A stretch of DNA of 64,000 bases from Chryseobacterium tructae (lineage in GTDB: Bacteria; Bacteroidota; Bacteroidia; Flavobacteriales; Weeksellaceae). A program made the translations under genes and the position numbers. The stretch is taken from NCBI RefSeq assembly GCF_030409875.1, contig NZ_JAUFQR010000001.1:682001-746000 (forward strand), written 5' to 3'. Positions 47,653-62,514 of the stretch are shown piece by piece. The notes below the pieces were generated by a model that was not told the DNA's origin, did no database searches, and saw only the letters and a list, made by a program, of their open reading frames with translations. Positions within the stretch are counted from its first letter, which is position 1. Each line of letters starts with the position of its first letter.

Positions 47653-48638
<986 letters not shown>

Positions 48639-50349: not shown

Positions 50350-50988
50350 ATGAATATACTGGCTACACAAATCGAACATTTGAATCAGGAATTGTCCTCG
50401 CAGCTTCCACAATTGATATTGGAGGCATTTGGAAAGTCTATTGAAGATATAAAAACCCTAAATATTGAACACAATAGTATCCAGATAGGAGATCAAATAC
50501 CAGAATTTTCATTGAGCAATGCTTTGGGGAAAATAATTAATTCGGGTGAAATTCTAAAAAATGGAAAGATGATTTTGGCTTTTTACAGAGGAAGTTGGTG
50601 CCCTTATTGTAATCTGGAGCTAAAATTTTTGCAGGATAATCTTCCCAGAATAAAACAGAAAGGAGGTATTTTAATCGCTGTTTCTCCGCAAAGTCCGGAT
50701 CATTCTCTGAGTATGGCAGGAAAAAATAATCTTGAGTTTGAAGTATTGACTGATACTGATAATAATTTTGCTAAAAAATTAGGGATTAGTTTTCAATTGC
50801 AGGATTTTGTATTTCCTTATTATAAAGATCTAGGAATTGATCTTTCTGACTTCAATAAAAATAATGAAAATACCGTACCTGTTCCGGCTGTTTTTGTAGT
50901 GGATGAAAATAGAGTGGTTACGTATAAATTTTTAGACGTAAATTACATGAATCGAATAGATGTGGAAGAACTGATACAAGCATTATGA
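50350..50988 (+). CDS. AhpC/TSA-family peroxiredoxin-like protein
   Basis: A 212-residue thioredoxin-fold protein probably reducing peroxides. The segment FYRGSWCPYCNLELKFLQ has a CxxC pair at Cys84 and Cys87, the pattern of the peroxiredoxin-like proteins (BCP/AhpC-TSA type). Then come LIAVSPQSPDHSL, FEVLTDTDNNFAKKLGI and PAVFVVDENRVVTYKF, all typical. An N-terminal helical extension of about 45 residues precedes the fold. It is the first gene of an operon; the next gene overlaps its stop by four bases (ATGA). An HxlR-family regulator diverges from it. Confidence 0.88.
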   Translation: MNILATQIEHLNQELSSQLPQLILEAFGKSIEDIKTLNIEHNSIQIGDQIPEFSLSNALGKIINSGEILKNGKMILAFYRGSWCPYCNLELKFLQDNLPRIKQKGGILIAVSPQSPDHSLSMAGKNNLEFEVLTDTDNNFAKKLGISFQLQDFVFPYYKDLGIDLSDFNKNNENTVPVPAVFVVDENRVVTYKFLDVNYMNRIDVEELIQAL

Positions 50989-51785
50989 CAGAAAAAAGAA
51001 AAGGAGCCCGTTCTATAAAAGATATTCCCACTGATATCTTAATACAATTGAACAATGGTGAAATTGAAACGGCTAATCTTACAGAATGGCTGGCTGTGGA
51101 TCAAAGACTTTTGTTAGAAAACTTATTAAAACAAAACAATCGGTCAGAATATTTCCAGAAAATTTTAAATAGAGTAGATCAATTAAAAAAGCAAACGGTC
51201 AATACCATTAATGAAGCTATTGGGTTAGGAATTCTTGAGCTTGCACTTAAAAATAAAGATGAAGAATTTCTTCTAAAGTTATCTTTCCATCAGGCAGATC
51301 TGGTGAGATGTTGGGCTGCTTATACTATAGGACGAAATAATTCTTTTAGTACAAAGGAAAAACTGAAAAAGATCCAACCTTTTGCTGCAGACTCTCATTT
51401 TGGGGTAAGAGAAATCTGTTGGATGACGGTGCGCCCGGATATTGCAACAAACCTTAAAGAATCTTTGTCTGTTTTATCAGAATGGACGAAACATGAAAAT
51501 GAAAATATAAGACGTTTTGCCAGTGAATCTACCAGACCAAGAGGAGTGTGGTGTGAGCATATTGATCTATTAAAACAAAATCCAGGGTTAGGATTGGAAA
51601 TTTTAGAACCATTACGCTCAGACTCTTCGAAATATGTGCAAGATAGTGTTGGCAATTGGCTGAATGATGCCAGCAAGTCCCAACCGGAATTTGTAGTGGA
51701 AATTTGTGATGAATGGCTTAGAGAAAGTAATACAAAGGAGACTCAATATATTGTCAAAAAAGCCTTGCGTACCATTCGTAAGTAA
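50985..51785 (+). CDS. AlkD-like DNA alkylation repair protein (HEAT-like repeats)
   Basis: A 266-residue protein of the DNA_alkylation family, whose HEAT-like repeats wrap damaged DNA and release 3-methyl- and 7-methylpurines. The region LVRCWAAYTIGRNN and the signature REICWMTVRPDI, then RRFASESTRPRGVWCEHI, fit the family; RFASESTRPRGVW is its best-conserved piece. The catalytic Asp/Trp/Arg cannot be assigned with certainty. It overlaps the peroxiredoxin gene by four bases (ATGA), a pairing that suggests combined defence against peroxide and alkylation damage. It ends at the border of the long repeat array. Confidence 0.8.
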   Translation: MTEKRKGARSIKDIPTDILIQLNNGEIETANLTEWLAVDQRLLLENLLKQNNRSEYFQKILNRVDQLKKQTVNTINEAIGLGILELALKNKDEEFLLKLSFHQADLVRCWAAYTIGRNNSFSTKEKLKKIQPFAADSHFGVREICWMTVRPDIATNLKESLSVLSEWTKHENENIRRFASESTRPRGVWCEHIDLLKQNPGLGLEILEPLRSDSSKYVQDSVGNWLNDASKSQPEFVVEICDEWLRESNTKETQYIVKKALRTIRK

Positions 51786-51787
51786 AA

Positions 51788-51796
51788 GTTATCCAT
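51788..51796 (+). promoter_or_regulatory. Degenerate DnaA box TTATCCATA
   Basis: TTATCCATA, one base off the consensus, in the AAAAG context. It sits 227 bases before the next box, in register with the array, so it is the decayed left end. Confidence 0.5.
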
Positions 51797-51907
51797 AAAA
51801 TCATCATTATGAATTAAAACCCCTCTCAAACTTTTCCAGATCAAAATATCAGCAAATTTTATATTATCATATTAAAGATCATTTATTTTGATGCTGAGTT
51901 TTAACCA

Positions 51908-51940
51908 ATCCTTGTCAAGGTCCTAAACCTTGACAAGGAT
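51908..51940. repeat. Array hairpin, copy 1
   Basis: ATCCTTGTCAAGGT, loop CCTAA, ACCTTGACAAGGAT: a perfect 14-base stem with a 5-base loop. Further copies are at 52377-52409, 52846-52878 and 53316-53348. Confidence 0.8.
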
Positions 51941-52016
51941 AATCAGATCGAAGTATTTTGAAAATCTATCAATGCATAGCATTAAAATTATCTGTGTAAT
52001 TTATGAGATGAAAAAG

Positions 52017-52025
52017 TTATCCACA
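52017..52025 (+). promoter_or_regulatory. DnaA box TTATCCACA (unit 1, box A)
   Basis: Exact TTATCCACA following AAAAAG, first of three in unit 1. The other two perfect boxes of this unit are at 52139-52147 and 52260-52268. Confidence 0.8.
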
Positions 52026-52376
52026 ATATGGAATTGTAGGAAAGCTTTTACTATATCTGTCATAAAATAAATAGGTTATGAAATATGCCTGCTAAAAAGA
52101 CTTTCCGGAAATAAGTCCAATAAATTATGATGAAAAAGTTATCCACAATATGAGATTGTAGAATAGATGTTATTGTATCTATCATACAATAAGTGGGTTA
52201 TGAAATATGCCTGTGGAAAAGGTTTTTTAAGGATAAATCTAATTTATGAGATGGAAAAGTTATCCACAAAGTCAGAATCTGAATTAAGACCCTCTCAAAT
52301 TTTTCCAGATCAAAATATCAGCTAAATTTTATATTCATATTAAAAGACCATTTATTTTGATGCTGAGTTTTAACCA

Positions 52377-52409
52377 ATCTTTGTCAAGGTTCTAAACCTT
52401 GACAAGGAT
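52377..52409. repeat. Array hairpin, copy 2
   Basis: ATCTTTGTCAAGGT, loop TCTAA, ACCTTGACAAGGAT: same hairpin as copy 1 with one C-to-T change in the left arm, giving a G-T type pair. Confidence 0.8.
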
Positions 52410-52486
52410 AATCAGATCGAAGTATTTTGAAAATCAATCAATGCATAGCATTAAAGTTATCAGTGAAACTTATGGTTAAAAAAAAG

Positions 52487-52495
52487 TTATCCACA
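52487..52495 (+). promoter_or_regulatory. DnaA box TTATCCACA (unit 2, box A)
   Basis: Exact TTATCCACA after AAAAAAG. The other two perfect boxes of unit 2 are at 52609-52617 and 52730-52738. Confidence 0.8.
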
Positions 52496-52845
52496 ATATG
52501 GAATTGTAGGAAAGCTTTTACTATATCTGTCATAAAATAAATAGGTTATGAAATATGCCTGCTAAAAAGGCTTTCCGGGAATAAATCCAATAAATTATGA
52601 TGAAAAAGTTATCCACAATATGGAATTGTAAGCAAGTTGTTACTGTACCTGTCATAAAATGAATAGGTTATGAAATATGCCTGTGGGAAAGGTTTTTTAA
52701 GGATAAATCTAATTTATGAGATGAAAAAGTTATCCACAAAGTCAGAATCTGAATTAAGACCCTATCAAATTTTTCCATATCAGAATATTAGCAAATTTTA
52801 TATTATCATATTAAAGACCATTTATTTTGATGCTGAGTTTTAACA

Positions 52846-52878
52846 ATCCTTGTCAAGGTTCTAAACCTTGACAAGGAT
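52846..52878. repeat. Array hairpin, copy 3
   Basis: ATCCTTGTCAAGGT, loop TCTAA, ACCTTGACAAGGAT: perfect 14-base stem. Confidence 0.8.
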
Positions 52879-52953
52879 AATTAGTTCAAAGTATTTTGAA
52901 AATCAATCAAGGAATAGCATTAAAGTTATCTGTGTAATTTATGGTTAAAAAAG

Positions 52954-52962
52954 TTATCCACA
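52954..52962 (+). promoter_or_regulatory. DnaA box TTATCCACA (unit 3, box A)
   Basis: Exact TTATCCACA after AAAAAAG. The other boxes of unit 3 are at 53076-53084 and 53197-53205; a last one, opening the fourth partial unit, is at 53424-53432. Confidence 0.8.
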
Positions 52963-53315
52963 ATATGGAATTGTAGAAAAGCTTTTACTATATCTGTCAT
53001 AAAATAAATAGGTTATGAAATATGCCTGCTAAAAAGGCTTTCCGGAAATAAGTCCAATAAATTATGATGAAAAAGTTATCCACAATATGAGACTGTAGAA
53101 TAAATACTATTGTATCTGTCATACAATAAGCAGGTTATGAAATGTGCCTGTGGAAAAGGTTTTTTAAGAATAAATCTAATTTATGAGATGAAAAAGTTAT
53201 CCACAAAGTCAGAATCTGAATTAAGACCCTCTCAAATTTTTCCAGATCAAAATATCAGCTAAATTTTATATTATCATATTAAAAGACCATTTATTTTGAT
53301 GCTGAGTTTTAACCA

Positions 53316-53348
53316 ATCCTTGTCAAGGTTCTAAACCTTGACAAGGAT
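53316..53348. repeat. Array hairpin, copy 4
   Basis: ATCCTTGTCAAGGT, loop TCTAA, ACCTTGACAAGGAT: perfect 14-base stem. Confidence 0.8.
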
Positions 53349-53470
53349 AATCAGATCAAAGTATTTTGAAAATCAATCAATGCATAGCATTAAAGTTATC
53401 TGTGTAATTTATGATTGAAAAAGTTATCCACAATATGGAAATGTGGAATTGAATTCTTTCTATTTTAAGA

Positions 53471-54229
53471 TCACCATTTCTCTGTTAAATACTTCCAATA
53501 TCTTTTGGGAACATGTTGAATATGCAGTTTCAGATTTTTTCTTTCAACAATATTGGTCTTGGTAAAATACCGCTGCCAAAGGGTTTGATAGTTTTTTTCA
53601 TCATTATGAAACCTCTCCTGATAATTTTTTATATCCAATTTTTCATCAGGATAAAAGAAATCAGCGGATTCAAGGTTATAAAGAATTCCATAATTTCTCC
53701 GTAAATCATAGATCATCCATTTCTGATCCTGATAGCGGTCACTAAAATGTTTTCTGATTAAGGGAAGAATATTGAAGTCGGGATCTATTTTTGAAAAGAA
53801 AATGCCATCCTGCATTTTTTCGAAACGTACAAAGGCAGTCATTCGGTGGCTTTCCCGATCTACAGATTTACAGATTTTAGAGATTTTCATAATGTCGGTA
53901 TCTGCATAGTTTTCCAAAATATTTTCTTCAGGATTCTTTACAGATTGTTTTACAGCTGATAATATTACTTTCTCTAAGTCGGGATCTTCAGATAAAAAAA
54001 CTTTTAAAAGCTTATGGACACCTTGTTTACCAAGATTCTGTTCTATTTTTTTCAATACCCGTTCCGATTTATCAGTTTGAGTAATGACTTCATGAATTTC
54101 AGCAAAAATATTTTCCTGATGAAACCTTTCTTTGCTTGCAATTTCTACATCCAGATAACGATATTCAAAAGCTTCAAATATCGCAGTAAAAAGTCCATCA
54201 AAACTTCCATCGTAGATTAGAGTTGTCAT
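53471..54229 (-). CDS. Putative DNA repair/metabolism protein (TIGR03915 type)
   Basis: A 252-residue cytosolic protein of the family found next to a radical SAM DNA modification/repair protein (TIGR03916) in many bacteria. Family landmarks are TLIYDGSFDGLFTAIFEAFE at the N-terminus, SVDRESHRMTAFVRFEKMQD and FNILPLIRKHFSDRYQDQKW in the middle, and LHIQHVPKRYWKYLTEKW at the C-terminus. The biochemical activity is not established. Its radical SAM partner is at 56853-58112 on the same strand, separated by an AraC regulator and an S41 peptidase, so the usual gene pair has been split. The left flank is the DnaA-box array. Confidence 0.8.
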   Translation of the reverse strand: MTTLIYDGSFDGLFTAIFEAFEYRYLDVEIASKERFHQENIFAEIHEVITQTDKSERVLKKIEQNLGKQGVHKLLKVFLSEDPDLEKVILSAVKQSVKNPEENILENYADTDIMKISKICKSVDRESHRMTAFVRFEKMQDGIFFSKIDPDFNILPLIRKHFSDRYQDQKWMIYDLRRNYGILYNLESADFFYPDEKLDIKNYQERFHNDEKNYQTLWQRYFTKTNIVERKNLKLHIQHVPKRYWKYLTEKW

Positions 54230-58112: not shown

Positions 58113-58268
58113 AAGGCAAAGAGATTGATATTATTTGTATCCAAATTGTATTTTAATGGTGTTCAAATTTAGTTCCAAAATTGATAAATGTCAACCTTTT
58201 TTCATAGAAGTTATCAACAAAAAACAGTCTCAAAATCATTATATTTACGCCTCATTAAAGTTTATATC

Positions 58269-59596
58269 ATGAATCATAAACCGATCGAAGGTTTTTCCAA
58301 GCTTCCAAAGCAGGGTAAAATCGACTGGCTTGTAAACGAATATCTTGAAGGAAATCAGGAATATCAAAATATATTAAAACAATATTGGAATGACGATGCA
58401 GACCTTCAGAAGCTTCACGAAGAATTTTCTGAAAATACGATTTCCAATTTCTATATGCCTTACGGAATTGCGCCTAACTTTTTAATTGACGGAAAATTAT
58501 TAGCACTCCCAATGGCTGTTGAAGAAAGTTCAGTAGTAGCCGCCGCTTCCAAAGCTGCAAATTCTGGATTGATAAAGGAGGGTTTAAAACTACCATCATC
58601 AATACAGAAAAGCTGGGACATACTCACTTTATCTTCGATGTGGAACCTCACAAATTATTACATTTCTTTAATTTCAGTTTAAAGAAAAAATTGCTGGAAT
58701 CTACAGAAGATATCACGGCTAACATGAGAAGACGTGGTGGGGGTATTTTGAACATCAGCCTTGTGGATAAAACCACAGAAATGCCTAATTATTACCAGTT
58801 GAAAGCAAGTTTTGATACGGTAGACTCAATGGGAGCTAATTTTATCAATTCATGCCTTGAGCAGTTTGGAAAAACATTGAGACAGGAAGTTGCAACCAGT
58901 GAAGATTTTACTCAGGAAGAAAAGAACTCATTGCAAATTGTAATGAATATTCTTTCCAATTTTACTCCTGATTGTATTGTAAGAGCTGAGGTTTCTTGTA
59001 AAATGGAAGACTTAAGAGATGACAGCGGAATTTCTCCTGAAGAATTTGCAGCTAAATTTAAGCAAGCCGTTACCATTGCAGAAATTGAACCTTACCGCGC
59101 AACCACTCACAATAAAGGAGTGATGAATGGGGTAGATGCTGTTGTGATTGCTACAGGAAATGATTTCAGAGCAACAGAAGCGTGTGCCCATGCCTATGCT
59201 GCAAGAGATGGGCAATACAGATCATTGACTCATTGTACAACTGATAACGGTGTTTTCAGATTTTGGATAGATCTTCCAATTTCCGTAGGAGTAGTTGGAG
59301 GTTTAACAAATCTTCACCCATTGGTAAAATTCTCTTTGGCTTTACTTGGAAAACCGTCCGCTCAGGAATTGATGAGTATTCTGGCTGTTTCAGGATTGGC
59401 CCAAAACTTTGGAGCATTGCGCTCTTTAGTAACTACAGGAATTCAGAAAGGTCATATGAAAATGCATTTACTGAACATTCTGAACCAATTAGGTGCTACA
59501 GAAGAAGAAAAACAACATTTTGTTACCTACTTCAAAGATAAGACAGTGAGCCACCACGAGGTGATCCATGAGTTTAACCGAATGAGAGGAAACTAA
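58269..59596 (+). pseudogene. mvaA: Hydroxymethylglutaryl-CoA reductase, class II (one-base frameshift)
   Basis: Enzyme of the mevalonate pathway or mevalonate use. The first frame (from MNHKPIEGFSKLPKQGKIDW at 58269) runs to YGIAPNFLIDGKLLALPMAV and EESSVVAAASKAAN, then breaks. Adding one T to the TT at 58562-58563 gives AANFWIDKGGFKTTIINTEK and joins the second frame (to 59596), with SMGANFINSCLEQFG, VVIATGNDFRATEACAHAYA, and GGLTNLHPLVKFSLALLG. The class II EESSVVAAAS and MGANFIN motifs are clear. The product is about 442 residues. Family similarity begins at the 58269 ATG, so the ATG at 58188 is rejected. A 55-residue membrane-protein gene overlaps its stop by one base. Confidence 0.9.
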
Positions 59597-61237: not shown

Positions 61238-62514
61238 ATGAAAATTAACAGAAGAAGAGGGATTATAAGAACGTTTAACCTTTTAGATCAACCCATAAGG
61301 TTTAACCCGTTTGTATTCAGTCGTACTTTTTTCATGTGGGCTTTCACAGGCCTTGTAGGCGGTATTATTGCCGGTGGATATTGGATTGTACTGGAACATT
61401 TTACTGAATTTTTAGCTCACTTTCAAGGCTGGCAGGTGATCCCTACAATGGCCATTTGTGGACTGTTGGCTGGATTGGTGATCCATTTTATTGGTGATCC
61501 GGGAGAAATTCATTTGATTGTTAATAACATCAGGTTCAATAAAGGAAAACTGGAACCCAAAAATAATCCTTCTATGATCTTGTCATCGCTTTTTTGTGTG
61601 GCATCAGGGGGAAGTTTAGGGCCTGAAGCCCCGCTAGTACAGGTTACCGGATCTACAGGAACCTGGCTTGGGAAAATTTTCAGACTCAAAGGTGAGGAGC
61701 TACGTTCATTAAGTATTGCTGGTATGGCTTCAGGGTTTACCGCGCTGTTTGGAGCTCCGCTTGGAGGAAGTCTTTTTTCCCTGGAAATTTTGCATCACAA
61801 ACATGCTGTGGAATATTATAAAGCTATTATTCCGGCTTTGGTAGCAAGTTGTTTCAGTTATTTGATGTTTGCTTTGATCATCCATTTGGGAATTGGAGCA
61901 ACCTGGGATCTGAAGGCTTACCATTACACTGGAGTATACGATTTCTATATGCTACGTTATTTGGAGCTGTAGGAACTTTCTTTGGTTGGATCTTCATTTT
62001 TGTGGTAAAATTTTTCAAAAAAGTTTTTGAATACAGAAAATTTCCAATCTACATCAAAACATTTGTGGGTGGGATTATTTTAGGTGTTATTGCTTACAAT
62101 TTTCCTATTACAAGATATTTTGGACACAATGAGATCAACCAGTTAATAGGTGGAAACTTTGGATTAAATTTTCTGATTCTTGTCCTGGTCTTTAAAATAT
62201 TAGCCATTGCCATTACAGTAACTTCAGGCTGGAGAGGAGGTTTTATTATTCCTTTGTTCTTTGTAGGAACCACTTTGGGATTAATTATCCACAATTTATT
62301 TCCTGCTGTAGATACAACCTTAGCTATTGTGAGTTGTATGGCAGCCATTAATGCCTGTGTAACGAGAACTCCTATGAGTACAACCATTATCCTGGGAACA
62401 TTAACAGGGTTTACTTATTTCGTACCGATATTGTTTGCAAGCCTTACAGGATATTTCCTGGCTCCAAGGATTCCGTTTATCGGGTCTCAGTCTGAAAAAT
62501 TAGCGGAAGAATAA
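61238..62514 (+). pseudogene. ClC-family chloride channel/transporter (one-base frameshift)
   Basis: Polytopic membrane protein that moves chloride or other anions, often in exchange for protons. The first frame has the selectivity-filter motif GGSLGPEAPLVQ (residues about 128-139), GEELRSLSIAGMASGFTALF, and FGAPLGGSLFSLEILHH. The second frame has GWRGGFIIPLFFVGTTLG and CVTRTPMSTTIILGTLTGF, also typical. Adding one T near 61948 gives VYDFYYATLFGAVGTFFG and joins the two frames into about 425 residues. It lies three bases after the DUF423 gene. The gating glutamate equivalent (Glu in GPEAP) is present, so it could be a channel or an antiporter. Confidence 0.87.

What the first reader, a model, noticed from the sequence alone, without database searches (positions are those of the whole stretch)
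51786..53440. Regular array of ten perfect DnaA boxes: candidate origin or DnaA-titration locus
TTATCCACA occurs at 52017, 52139, 52260, 52487, 52609, 52730, 52954, 53076, 53197 and 53424, all on one strand, with a decayed TTATCCATA at about 51790. The spacing cycles 122, 121, 227 bases, so the array is built from 470-base units. Chance matches of a 9-base word would be far rarer. The consensus is the known DnaA box, each unit includes an AT-rich stretch, and no gene is present for 1.65 kb. Such a homogenised tandem array differs from the compact clusters of most origins. It could be oriC, a datA-like titration site, or a repeat that happens to carry the box. Flanking genes converge on it.
Basis: partly seen in the sequence, partly recalled or inferred. 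Interest (0 to 1): 0.88.

Follow-up and report, generated by a model that had tools for sequence, protein, structure and literature searches.

The report
Remote DnaA-box array in Chryseobacterium
A non-coding stretch far from the replication origin carries ten perfect binding sites for the replication-starting protein DnaA; related species that have the stretch keep these sites while the DNA between them changes, so it is probably a sponge-like control site that restrains new rounds of chromosome copying, a kind of site known from E. coli.

Summary
In detail: ten perfect TTATCCACA boxes on one strand at 52017-53424, in 470-bp units between convergent genes. It is not oriC: GC skew and a DnaA-box cluster alignable across relatives place oriC beside rpiB on another contig, and in eight relatives with both on one large contig the array lies 0.75-0.90 Mb from rpiB. 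Nor is it a repeat that happens to carry the box: in 36 of 36 orthologous gaps of at least 150 bp boxes persist (array strand 176 perfect, 8 one-mismatch; other strand none perfect) while spacers diverge. The constant word is longer, AAAAGTTATCCACAA. Box number ranges from 2-3 to about 10. Some genomes without such pairs hold other DnaA-box clusters at a neighbouring orthologous gap. Best reading: a DnaA-binding control locus working like E. coli datA, most simply by titration. DnaA binding and any effect on initiation are inferred; a datA-type IHF site was inconclusive. I found no report of such a locus in Bacteroidota (open-access papers only, and the term datA is read there as 'data').

The parts
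51786..53470 (.). Intergenic DnaA-box array (whole locus), C1:733786-735470 of the genome
   Evidence: found between the same two genes in relatives
51789..51797 (+). Decayed box TTATCCATA, one mismatch, directly after the stop codon of the left gene
   Evidence: In most relatives with the array the first perfect box starts 5-7 bases into the gap
52017..52495 (+). First 470-bp unit: boxes at 52017, 52139, 52260; next unit begins at box 52487
52487..52962 (+). Second unit: boxes at 52487, 52609, 52730; next unit begins at box 52954
52954..53432 (+). Third unit: boxes at 52954, 53076, 53197; final box at 53424
51910..51938 (.). Palindrome CCTTGTCAAGG-CCTTGACAAGG in the long spacer; further copies at about 52379-52407, 52848-52876, 53318-53346
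   Evidence: related palindromes at at least 14 other places in the genome, so a dispersed repeat captured by the spacer
50985..51785 (+). Left neighbour, 266 aa, C-terminal part like DNA alkylation repair enzymes (PF08713)
53471..54229 (-). Right neighbour, TIGR03915 putative DNA repair protein (DUF4130, PF13566)

Best explanation
The array is a chromosomal DnaA-binding control locus that works like a datA-type or DnaA-box-cluster sink. Each extended box AAAAGTTATCCACAA binds DnaA at high affinity. After initiation the fork reaches the locus about 0.8 Mb from oriC and doubles it, so free DnaA falls below the level needed to fill the weaker boxes of oriC and re-initiation is delayed. Box number is tuned by unequal exchange and gene conversion, which also homogenise the 470-bp units. 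Shown: presence, conservation of boxes over changing spacers, orthology, copy-number variation, distance from the skew-defined oriC, and that the oriC cluster of this genome has no perfect box. Inferred: that DnaA is the ligand, that binding titrates it, that timing changes, and the exchange mechanism. Whether ATP hydrolysis (as at datA) or only passive binding is involved is open.
For: 1) Conservation beyond the repeat: in 36 of 36 loci where the left gene lies downstream in convergent orientation with a gap of at least 150 bp (35 of the 80 fetched loci plus the window) there are at least 2 perfect boxes; array strand 176 perfect, 8 one-mismatch, 31 two-mismatch; other strand 0, 14 and 101. 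In the 21 loci with exactly three boxes (a set chosen for having them) non-box columns average 0.77 identity. Several lineages have spacers too diverged to align by eye yet the same word. 2) Ligand: the C-terminal piece of this genome's DnaA matches PDB entry 1j1v (DnaA) at E 8e-19 and has KDHSTV where that chain has RDHTTV; that 1j1v is E. coli domain IV on DNA and that these residues read the box is recalled. oriC, located independently, carries the same kind of word (GTTTTCCACA, CTTATTCACA, AGTTATCAACA). 3) Place: 0.150-0.187 of the chromosome from rpiB in 8 of 8 genomes with both on one large contig, boxes reading away from it in 8 of 8. 4) Strong sites sit away from oriC: 10 of the 15 AAAAGTTATCCACAA in this genome are in the array and all 15 lie in C1:555-802 kb, 4.4% of the genome. 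5) Turnover: 5 of 15 orthologous copies of the neighbouring 802-kb gap, from genomes picked for few or no 120-bp pairs, hold two or more boxes in other geometry. Of 12 genomes with at least two 12-bp-spaced pairs 11 lack the 120-bp-spaced pair, against 42 of 86 others (Fisher p 0.005; threshold chosen after seeing the counts, kinship not corrected).
Against: No binding or phenotype data. 53 of 98 genus genomes have no such pair, and some of the 45 pairs are at other loci; 0 of 137 genomes of 27 other genera in the family have one, so it is not essential to the family. 10 of the 15 neighbouring-gap copies have no perfect box. The constant word is longer than a DnaA box, which another protein could explain. 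IHF-consensus matches between boxes: exact 2 of 99 units (2.1 expected); at most one mismatch 46 of 99 against 31.7, sd 4.7, highest of 100 shuffles 47, related units not independent. No 10.5-bp phasing of the boxes. The conserved distance is weak evidence because gene order is broadly conserved: dnaA stays at 0.24-0.38 in the same eight genomes. One review that reports the B. subtilis clusters also says that clusters with significant regulatory roles have not been identified there (PMC5295017).
Confidence: 0.62

Rival explanations
1. Binding array for DnaA or another protein with a role other than titration: nucleoid organisation, segregation anchoring, or a DARS-like site that reactivates DnaA.
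For: The constant word extends 5 bases upstream of the box. DnaA-type boxes also sit in front of parA-parB-like genes and of rpoB in this genome, so DnaA or a look-alike acts at several loci. E. coli has both inactivating and reactivating sites (PMC4585315, passages).
Against: The same type of word occurs at oriC, which favours DnaA; head-to-tail geometry and varying copy number suit a simple sink (inference).
Confidence: 0.2
2. Non-functional tandem repeat kept alike by gene conversion, whose unit happens to include a DnaA box.
For: Units within the genome are alike and spacers include a dispersed palindrome.
Against: Between species the spacers diverge while boxes do not: 176 perfect to 8 one-mismatch. 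Three-box loci have just two spacers of different sequence and length, so homogenisation cannot keep their boxes alike.
Confidence: 0.07
3. The array is oriC or a second active origin.
For: Dense perfect DnaA boxes and low G+C (27.8%).
Against: Third-position skew is positive in every C1 sample from 0.05 to 2.65 Mb, total skew in all but two (641 kb -0.042, 2650 kb -0.002); the switch lies at C3:680-740 kb next to a box cluster. In relative G084 the switch is between about 20 and 300 kb, with rpiB at 170 kb and the array at 4915 kb.
Confidence: 0.03
4. Regulatory or terminator region for the two convergent neighbours.
For: It lies between convergent genes and contains palindromes.
Against: In L200 and L202 three boxes lie beside the right gene although the left gene was not found in the locus, and five convergent pairs do without boxes at gaps of 18-136 bp. 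None of 18 Rfam matches reached its gathering score.
Confidence: 0.05

Closest known systems
datA of Escherichia coli (DnaA titration and datA-dependent ATP hydrolysis)
   Same: Non-coding cluster of DnaA boxes outside oriC on one replichore at a conserved distance (0.10 of the chromosome in E. coli, PMC5010248 passages; 0.15-0.19 here).
   Different: datA has five boxes around one IHF site, only some of them consensus (PMC4585315, PMC5835720 passages). Here 2-10 perfect extended boxes stand head to tail, mostly about 100-125 bp apart; no IHF site is demonstrated and copy number varies between species.
DnaA-box clusters (DBCs) of Bacillus subtilis
   Same: Clusters outside oriC; removal of all six gave early initiation and one restored cluster partly relieved it (PMC5295017 passages; the same review elsewhere doubts a significant role).
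   Different: Described as oriC-proximal (title of Okumura 2012, seen in a reference list); a homogenised tandem array is not mentioned in the passages seen.
Streptomyces coelicolor DnaA-box cluster
   Same: Said to be analogous to datA and to repress untimely initiation (PMC5742627 passage).
   Different: Structure not compared here; only the review sentence was seen.
DARS1 and DARS2 of E. coli
   Same: Non-coding DnaA-box loci at a conserved distance from oriC (0.33 and 0.21).
   Different: DARS act by nucleotide exchange and have a core of three boxes, DARS2 with IHF and Fis sites; such a core was not looked for here.

Membership tests
oriC (chromosomal origin) | Lies at the minus-to-plus switch of GC skew | tested here: not met
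   switch at C3:680-740 kb; third-position skew positive on both sides of the array
oriC (chromosomal origin) | DnaA-box cluster kept across the genus | tested here: not met
   Box pair 90-119 bases apart in 45 of 98 genus genomes; the region beside rpiB aligns in 10 of 11 genomes fetched, one of them (G057) much diverged, one missed by the script
datA | Cluster of DnaA boxes in a non-coding region outside oriC | tested here: met
datA | IHF-binding site between two essential boxes | tested here: inconclusive
   exact consensus 2 of 99 units (2.1 expected); at most one mismatch 46 of 99 (31.7 expected, sd 4.7, shuffle maximum 47)
datA | Conserved distance from oriC | tested here: met
   0.150-0.187 in 8 of 8 genomes, sd 0.012; weak, because dnaA also stays within 0.24-0.38
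datA | Promotes DnaA-ATP hydrolysis; deletion raises origins per mass | not testable with these tools
   Needs biochemistry and flow cytometry
DnaA-box cluster (titration type) | Boxes match the DnaA consensus TTWTNCACA and outlast surrounding sequence | tested here: met
   consensus from PMC5835720 passage
DnaA-box cluster (titration type) | Bound by DnaA in the cell; removal gives early initiation | not testable with these tools
   Only indirect: DnaA domain IV conserved

The most novel reading that the evidence does not exclude
Chryseobacterium runs a multi-locus DnaA sink domain: about 250 kb, 0.7-0.9 Mb from oriC, holding most or all extended DnaA boxes of a genome, in which box arrays of different geometry (120-bp head-to-tail, 12-bp triplets, inverted pairs) arise, expand and replace one another at the same intergenic slots, tuning DnaA-sink size to lineage and perhaps genome size. 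Genomes with the 120-bp-spaced pair are larger (median 5.2 against 4.4 Mb in 98 genomes, not corrected for kinship).
Probability: 0.25. Interest if true: 0.8.

Novelty: new variant of a known kind. Interest (0 to 1): 0.6.

Why it matters
How bacteria outside the usual models keep initiation to once per cycle is little known, and for Bacteroidota I found nothing in my searches. This locus offers natural variation in box number (2 to about 10, or none) among close relatives, so the titration model could be tested by comparing or editing box copy number. The constant word may also give a sharper DnaA-site definition for the genus.

Tried and rejected
Origin reading: rejected by skew and by an independent box cluster at rpiB. 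A first idea that the boxes mark an origin-centred polarity switch near C1:590 kb was dropped: skew does not switch there, and the satellites are a few separate loci (605 kb, 802 kb, rpoB). RNA reading: Rfam gave only matches below gathering score. IHF site: inconclusive. Helical phasing: none at 10.5 bp. Conserved distance as strong evidence: weakened by the dnaA control. The number of independent expansions is unclear: on a one-gene tree 'many boxes' needs 3 changes but well-supported branches force only 1. Literature searches gave no report of such a locus in Bacteroidota; the library is open-access only, and because letter case does not count the term datA matched 'data', so those searches discriminated by their other terms alone. 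One Elizabethkingia paper (PMC8994065, passages) predicts an oriC away from dnaA, which fits the layout here.

Rows dropped before counts: contig-end samples L064, L104 and L158 were left out of the third-position skew; L282 was missed by the oriC script; of the 11 genomes, one search uses eight, leaving out the window's own (contig order inferred), G003 (pair at 0.17 of its 5.06-Mb contig from rpiB by my arithmetic, left gene not found beside it) and G057 (no 120-bp pair); one search left out three of the 102 units.

Full report
What is there. Ten perfect TTATCCACA stand on the + strand at 52017-53424, with one decayed copy at 51789, in 3.5 copies of a 470-bp unit. Spacing runs 122, 121, 227 (once 224). 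The locus is free of ORFs of 80 aa or more and lies between convergent genes: a protein with a DNA_alkylation match (PF08713) on the left and a TIGR03915 / DUF4130 putative DNA repair protein on the right. Twelve boxes in the window compare with 0.83 expected; 0 of 100 shuffles reached 12.

Where it is. The window is C1:682001-746000 of a 5.63-Mb genome in three contigs; of the 80 relatives fetched by the right-hand gene 78 are titled Chryseobacterium and 2 Weeksellaceae. I sampled GC skew in 20-kb stretches. Total skew on C1 is positive from 0.05 to 2.5 Mb except at 641 kb, and mostly negative from 2.65 Mb on (exceptions 3.9 and 4.5 Mb); on C3 it turns from minus to plus near 680-690 kb, with some negative samples again after 760 kb. 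Third-position skew, averaged over both gene strands, is positive in every C1 sample from 0.05 to 2.65 Mb and turns on C3 between 680 and 740 kb, with a few stray samples. At C3:690.0-690.35 kb, upstream of the rpiB-like gene (name recalled from sequence), is a cluster of box-like sites; the region aligns in 10 of 11 genomes fetched, nine closely, while G057 is diverged. That is the likely oriC. In this genome it contains no perfect TTATCCACA; G057 has one there. In relative G084 the skew turns between about 20 and 300 kb, where rpiB is (170 kb), with the array at 4915 kb. In eight genomes with array and rpiB on one large contig (seven of one contig, G010 of two) the array lies 751-902 kb from rpiB, 0.150-0.187 of the chromosome, and its boxes read away from it in 8 of 8. 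In the window's own genome the distance is about 0.91 or 1.06 Mb, depending on whether C2 lies between; contig order is inferred from skew. The dnaA gene is elsewhere (C1:3501 kb).

It is conserved, and the boxes more than anything else. Of 80 relatives fetched through the right-hand gene (best 80 of 156 found, so biased to close kin), 35, plus the window, have the left gene downstream in convergent orientation with a gap of at least 150 bp. All 36 have at least two perfect boxes: 176 perfect, 8 one-mismatch and 31 two-mismatch on the array strand; 0, 14 and 101 on the other. That set was not chosen by box content. Five neighbour pairs with gaps of 18-136 bp have none (L207, L215, L223, L238, L240). 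Of the 40 loci where the left gene was not found, 37 have none and three have boxes beside the right gene: L200, L202 and contig-end L167. The commonest form is three boxes spaced 168-180 and 117-119 bp; expanded forms have 5-10 boxes mostly about 100-125 bp apart with longer spacings (148-458) between. In the 21 three-box loci, chosen for having exactly three, non-box columns average 0.77 identity and pairwise identity has a median of 0.71. Across 102 units aligned (97 from this locus, five from the 605- and 802-kb loci) the word survives while many spacers are too diverged to align by eye. Over 148 of the 176 perfect boxes the flanks AAAAG (-5 to -1) and A (+9) are 98-100% constant.

Distribution. 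In 98 genus genomes 45 have a box pair at 90-119 bp spacing, some of them at other loci; the reversed control pattern hits 1. In a family-wide draw with a slightly stricter pattern 42 of 246 genomes have it, all among the 109 of this genus: 0 of 137 in the 27 other genera. On a one-gene tree of 81 loci, array presence needs 5 changes and the three box-number states 7.

Other loci. In this genome all 15 copies of AAAAGTTATCCACAA lie in C1:555-802 kb; ten are in the array. The others are at 555 kb (before rpoB), 575 kb, 605 kb and 802 kb (two). Among single-contig genomes listed (the listing is capped), all copies fall within 262 kb in G032 (10 of 10), G038 (13 of 13), G084 (10 of 10), G002 (4 of 4) and G041 (5 of 5); G025 has 6 of 7 and G020 2 of 3 together, the last copy being far away. 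The 605-kb locus is an inverted-pair cluster with AT-rich DNA, syntenic in G084 and with matching neighbour genes in L247 and L250; by eye, similar clusters appear about 85-205 kb from the array in at least 15 genomes. The 802-kb gap was checked in 29 genomes picked for few or no hits (26 have no 120-bp pair, three have one): 15 have a close orthologue of the gene beside it, 5 of these have two or more boxes and 10 have no perfect box. The five differ: two or three boxes 12 bp apart, ten boxes in 12-bp-spaced groups about 470 bp (once 205) apart, or mixed-orientation clusters. A genus-wide scan for 12-bp-spaced pairs hit 29 of 98 genomes; of the 12 with at least two, 11 lack the 120-bp pair, against 42 of the other 86 (Fisher p 0.005). 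The threshold was chosen after seeing the counts and related genomes are not independent, so this is a hint only.

How it probably works. The ligand is most likely DnaA. The C-terminal piece of this genome's DnaA matches PDB entry 1j1v (recalled as E. coli domain IV on DNA) at E 8e-19, with KDHSTV for RDHTTV, and oriC carries the same type of word. In E. coli, datA lowers active DnaA and also binds it, and its effect depends on copy number and hence position (PMC5835720, PMC5010248, passages). The array has what a passive sink needs: many consensus sites, doubled about a third of the way along the replichore, and freedom to change number and spacing. A datA-like complex would predict a bending site between boxes; the IHF test was inconclusive. 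Hence 'works like a DnaA sink' is favoured over 'is a datA'.

What is known. Chromosomal DnaA-box clusters that restrain initiation are reported from E. coli, B. subtilis and S. [quoted passage not shown] subtilis. I found no description for Bacteroidota in searches, which cover open-access papers and in which 'datA' could not be told from 'data'. The kind is therefore known; the head-to-tail homogenised geometry, the extended constant word and the differing geometries between relatives are what looks new.

Noticed in passing
C1:605.1 kb (L056), L247, L250, L303: A second DnaA-box cluster with inverted pairs (TTATCCACA, TTATTCACA, TGTGGAAAA, TGTGGATAA) and AT-rich DNA, with the same neighbour genes in some relatives, on the oriC side of the array.
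   Followed up: partly
C1:802.0-802.3 kb (L062); L325, L326, L328, L329, L331: Intergenic slot that holds DnaA-box clusters of quite different geometry in different species, including 12-bp-spaced groups about 470 bp apart (L329).
   Followed up: partly
C1:4073391-4073421 (L100): 31-bp inverted pair of DnaA boxes upstream of parA-parB-like genes (names recalled; neighbour genes checked in this genome only); near-identical pairs in many genus genomes and similar ones in some other genera.
   Followed up: partly
C1:555222 (L053); L117, L120: Extended DnaA box just upstream of rpoB, overlapping what looks like a promoter; the same box beside rpoB in two relatives.
   Followed up: partly
window 47653-48638, 58188-59596, 61238-62514; C1:3500908-3502397; C1:4073011-4073301: Several household genes, dnaA and parA among them, are split into overlapping frames; probably small insertion/deletion errors of this assembly. 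Gene names are recalled from sequence.
   Followed up: no
98 genus genomes: Genomes with the 120-bp-spaced box pair are larger (median 5.2 against 4.4 Mb); kinship not corrected.
   Followed up: partly
window 51910-51938 and at least 14 other genome places: Dispersed palindrome CCTTGTCAAGG-N7-CCTTGACAAGG, present inside the array's long spacers.
   Followed up: no
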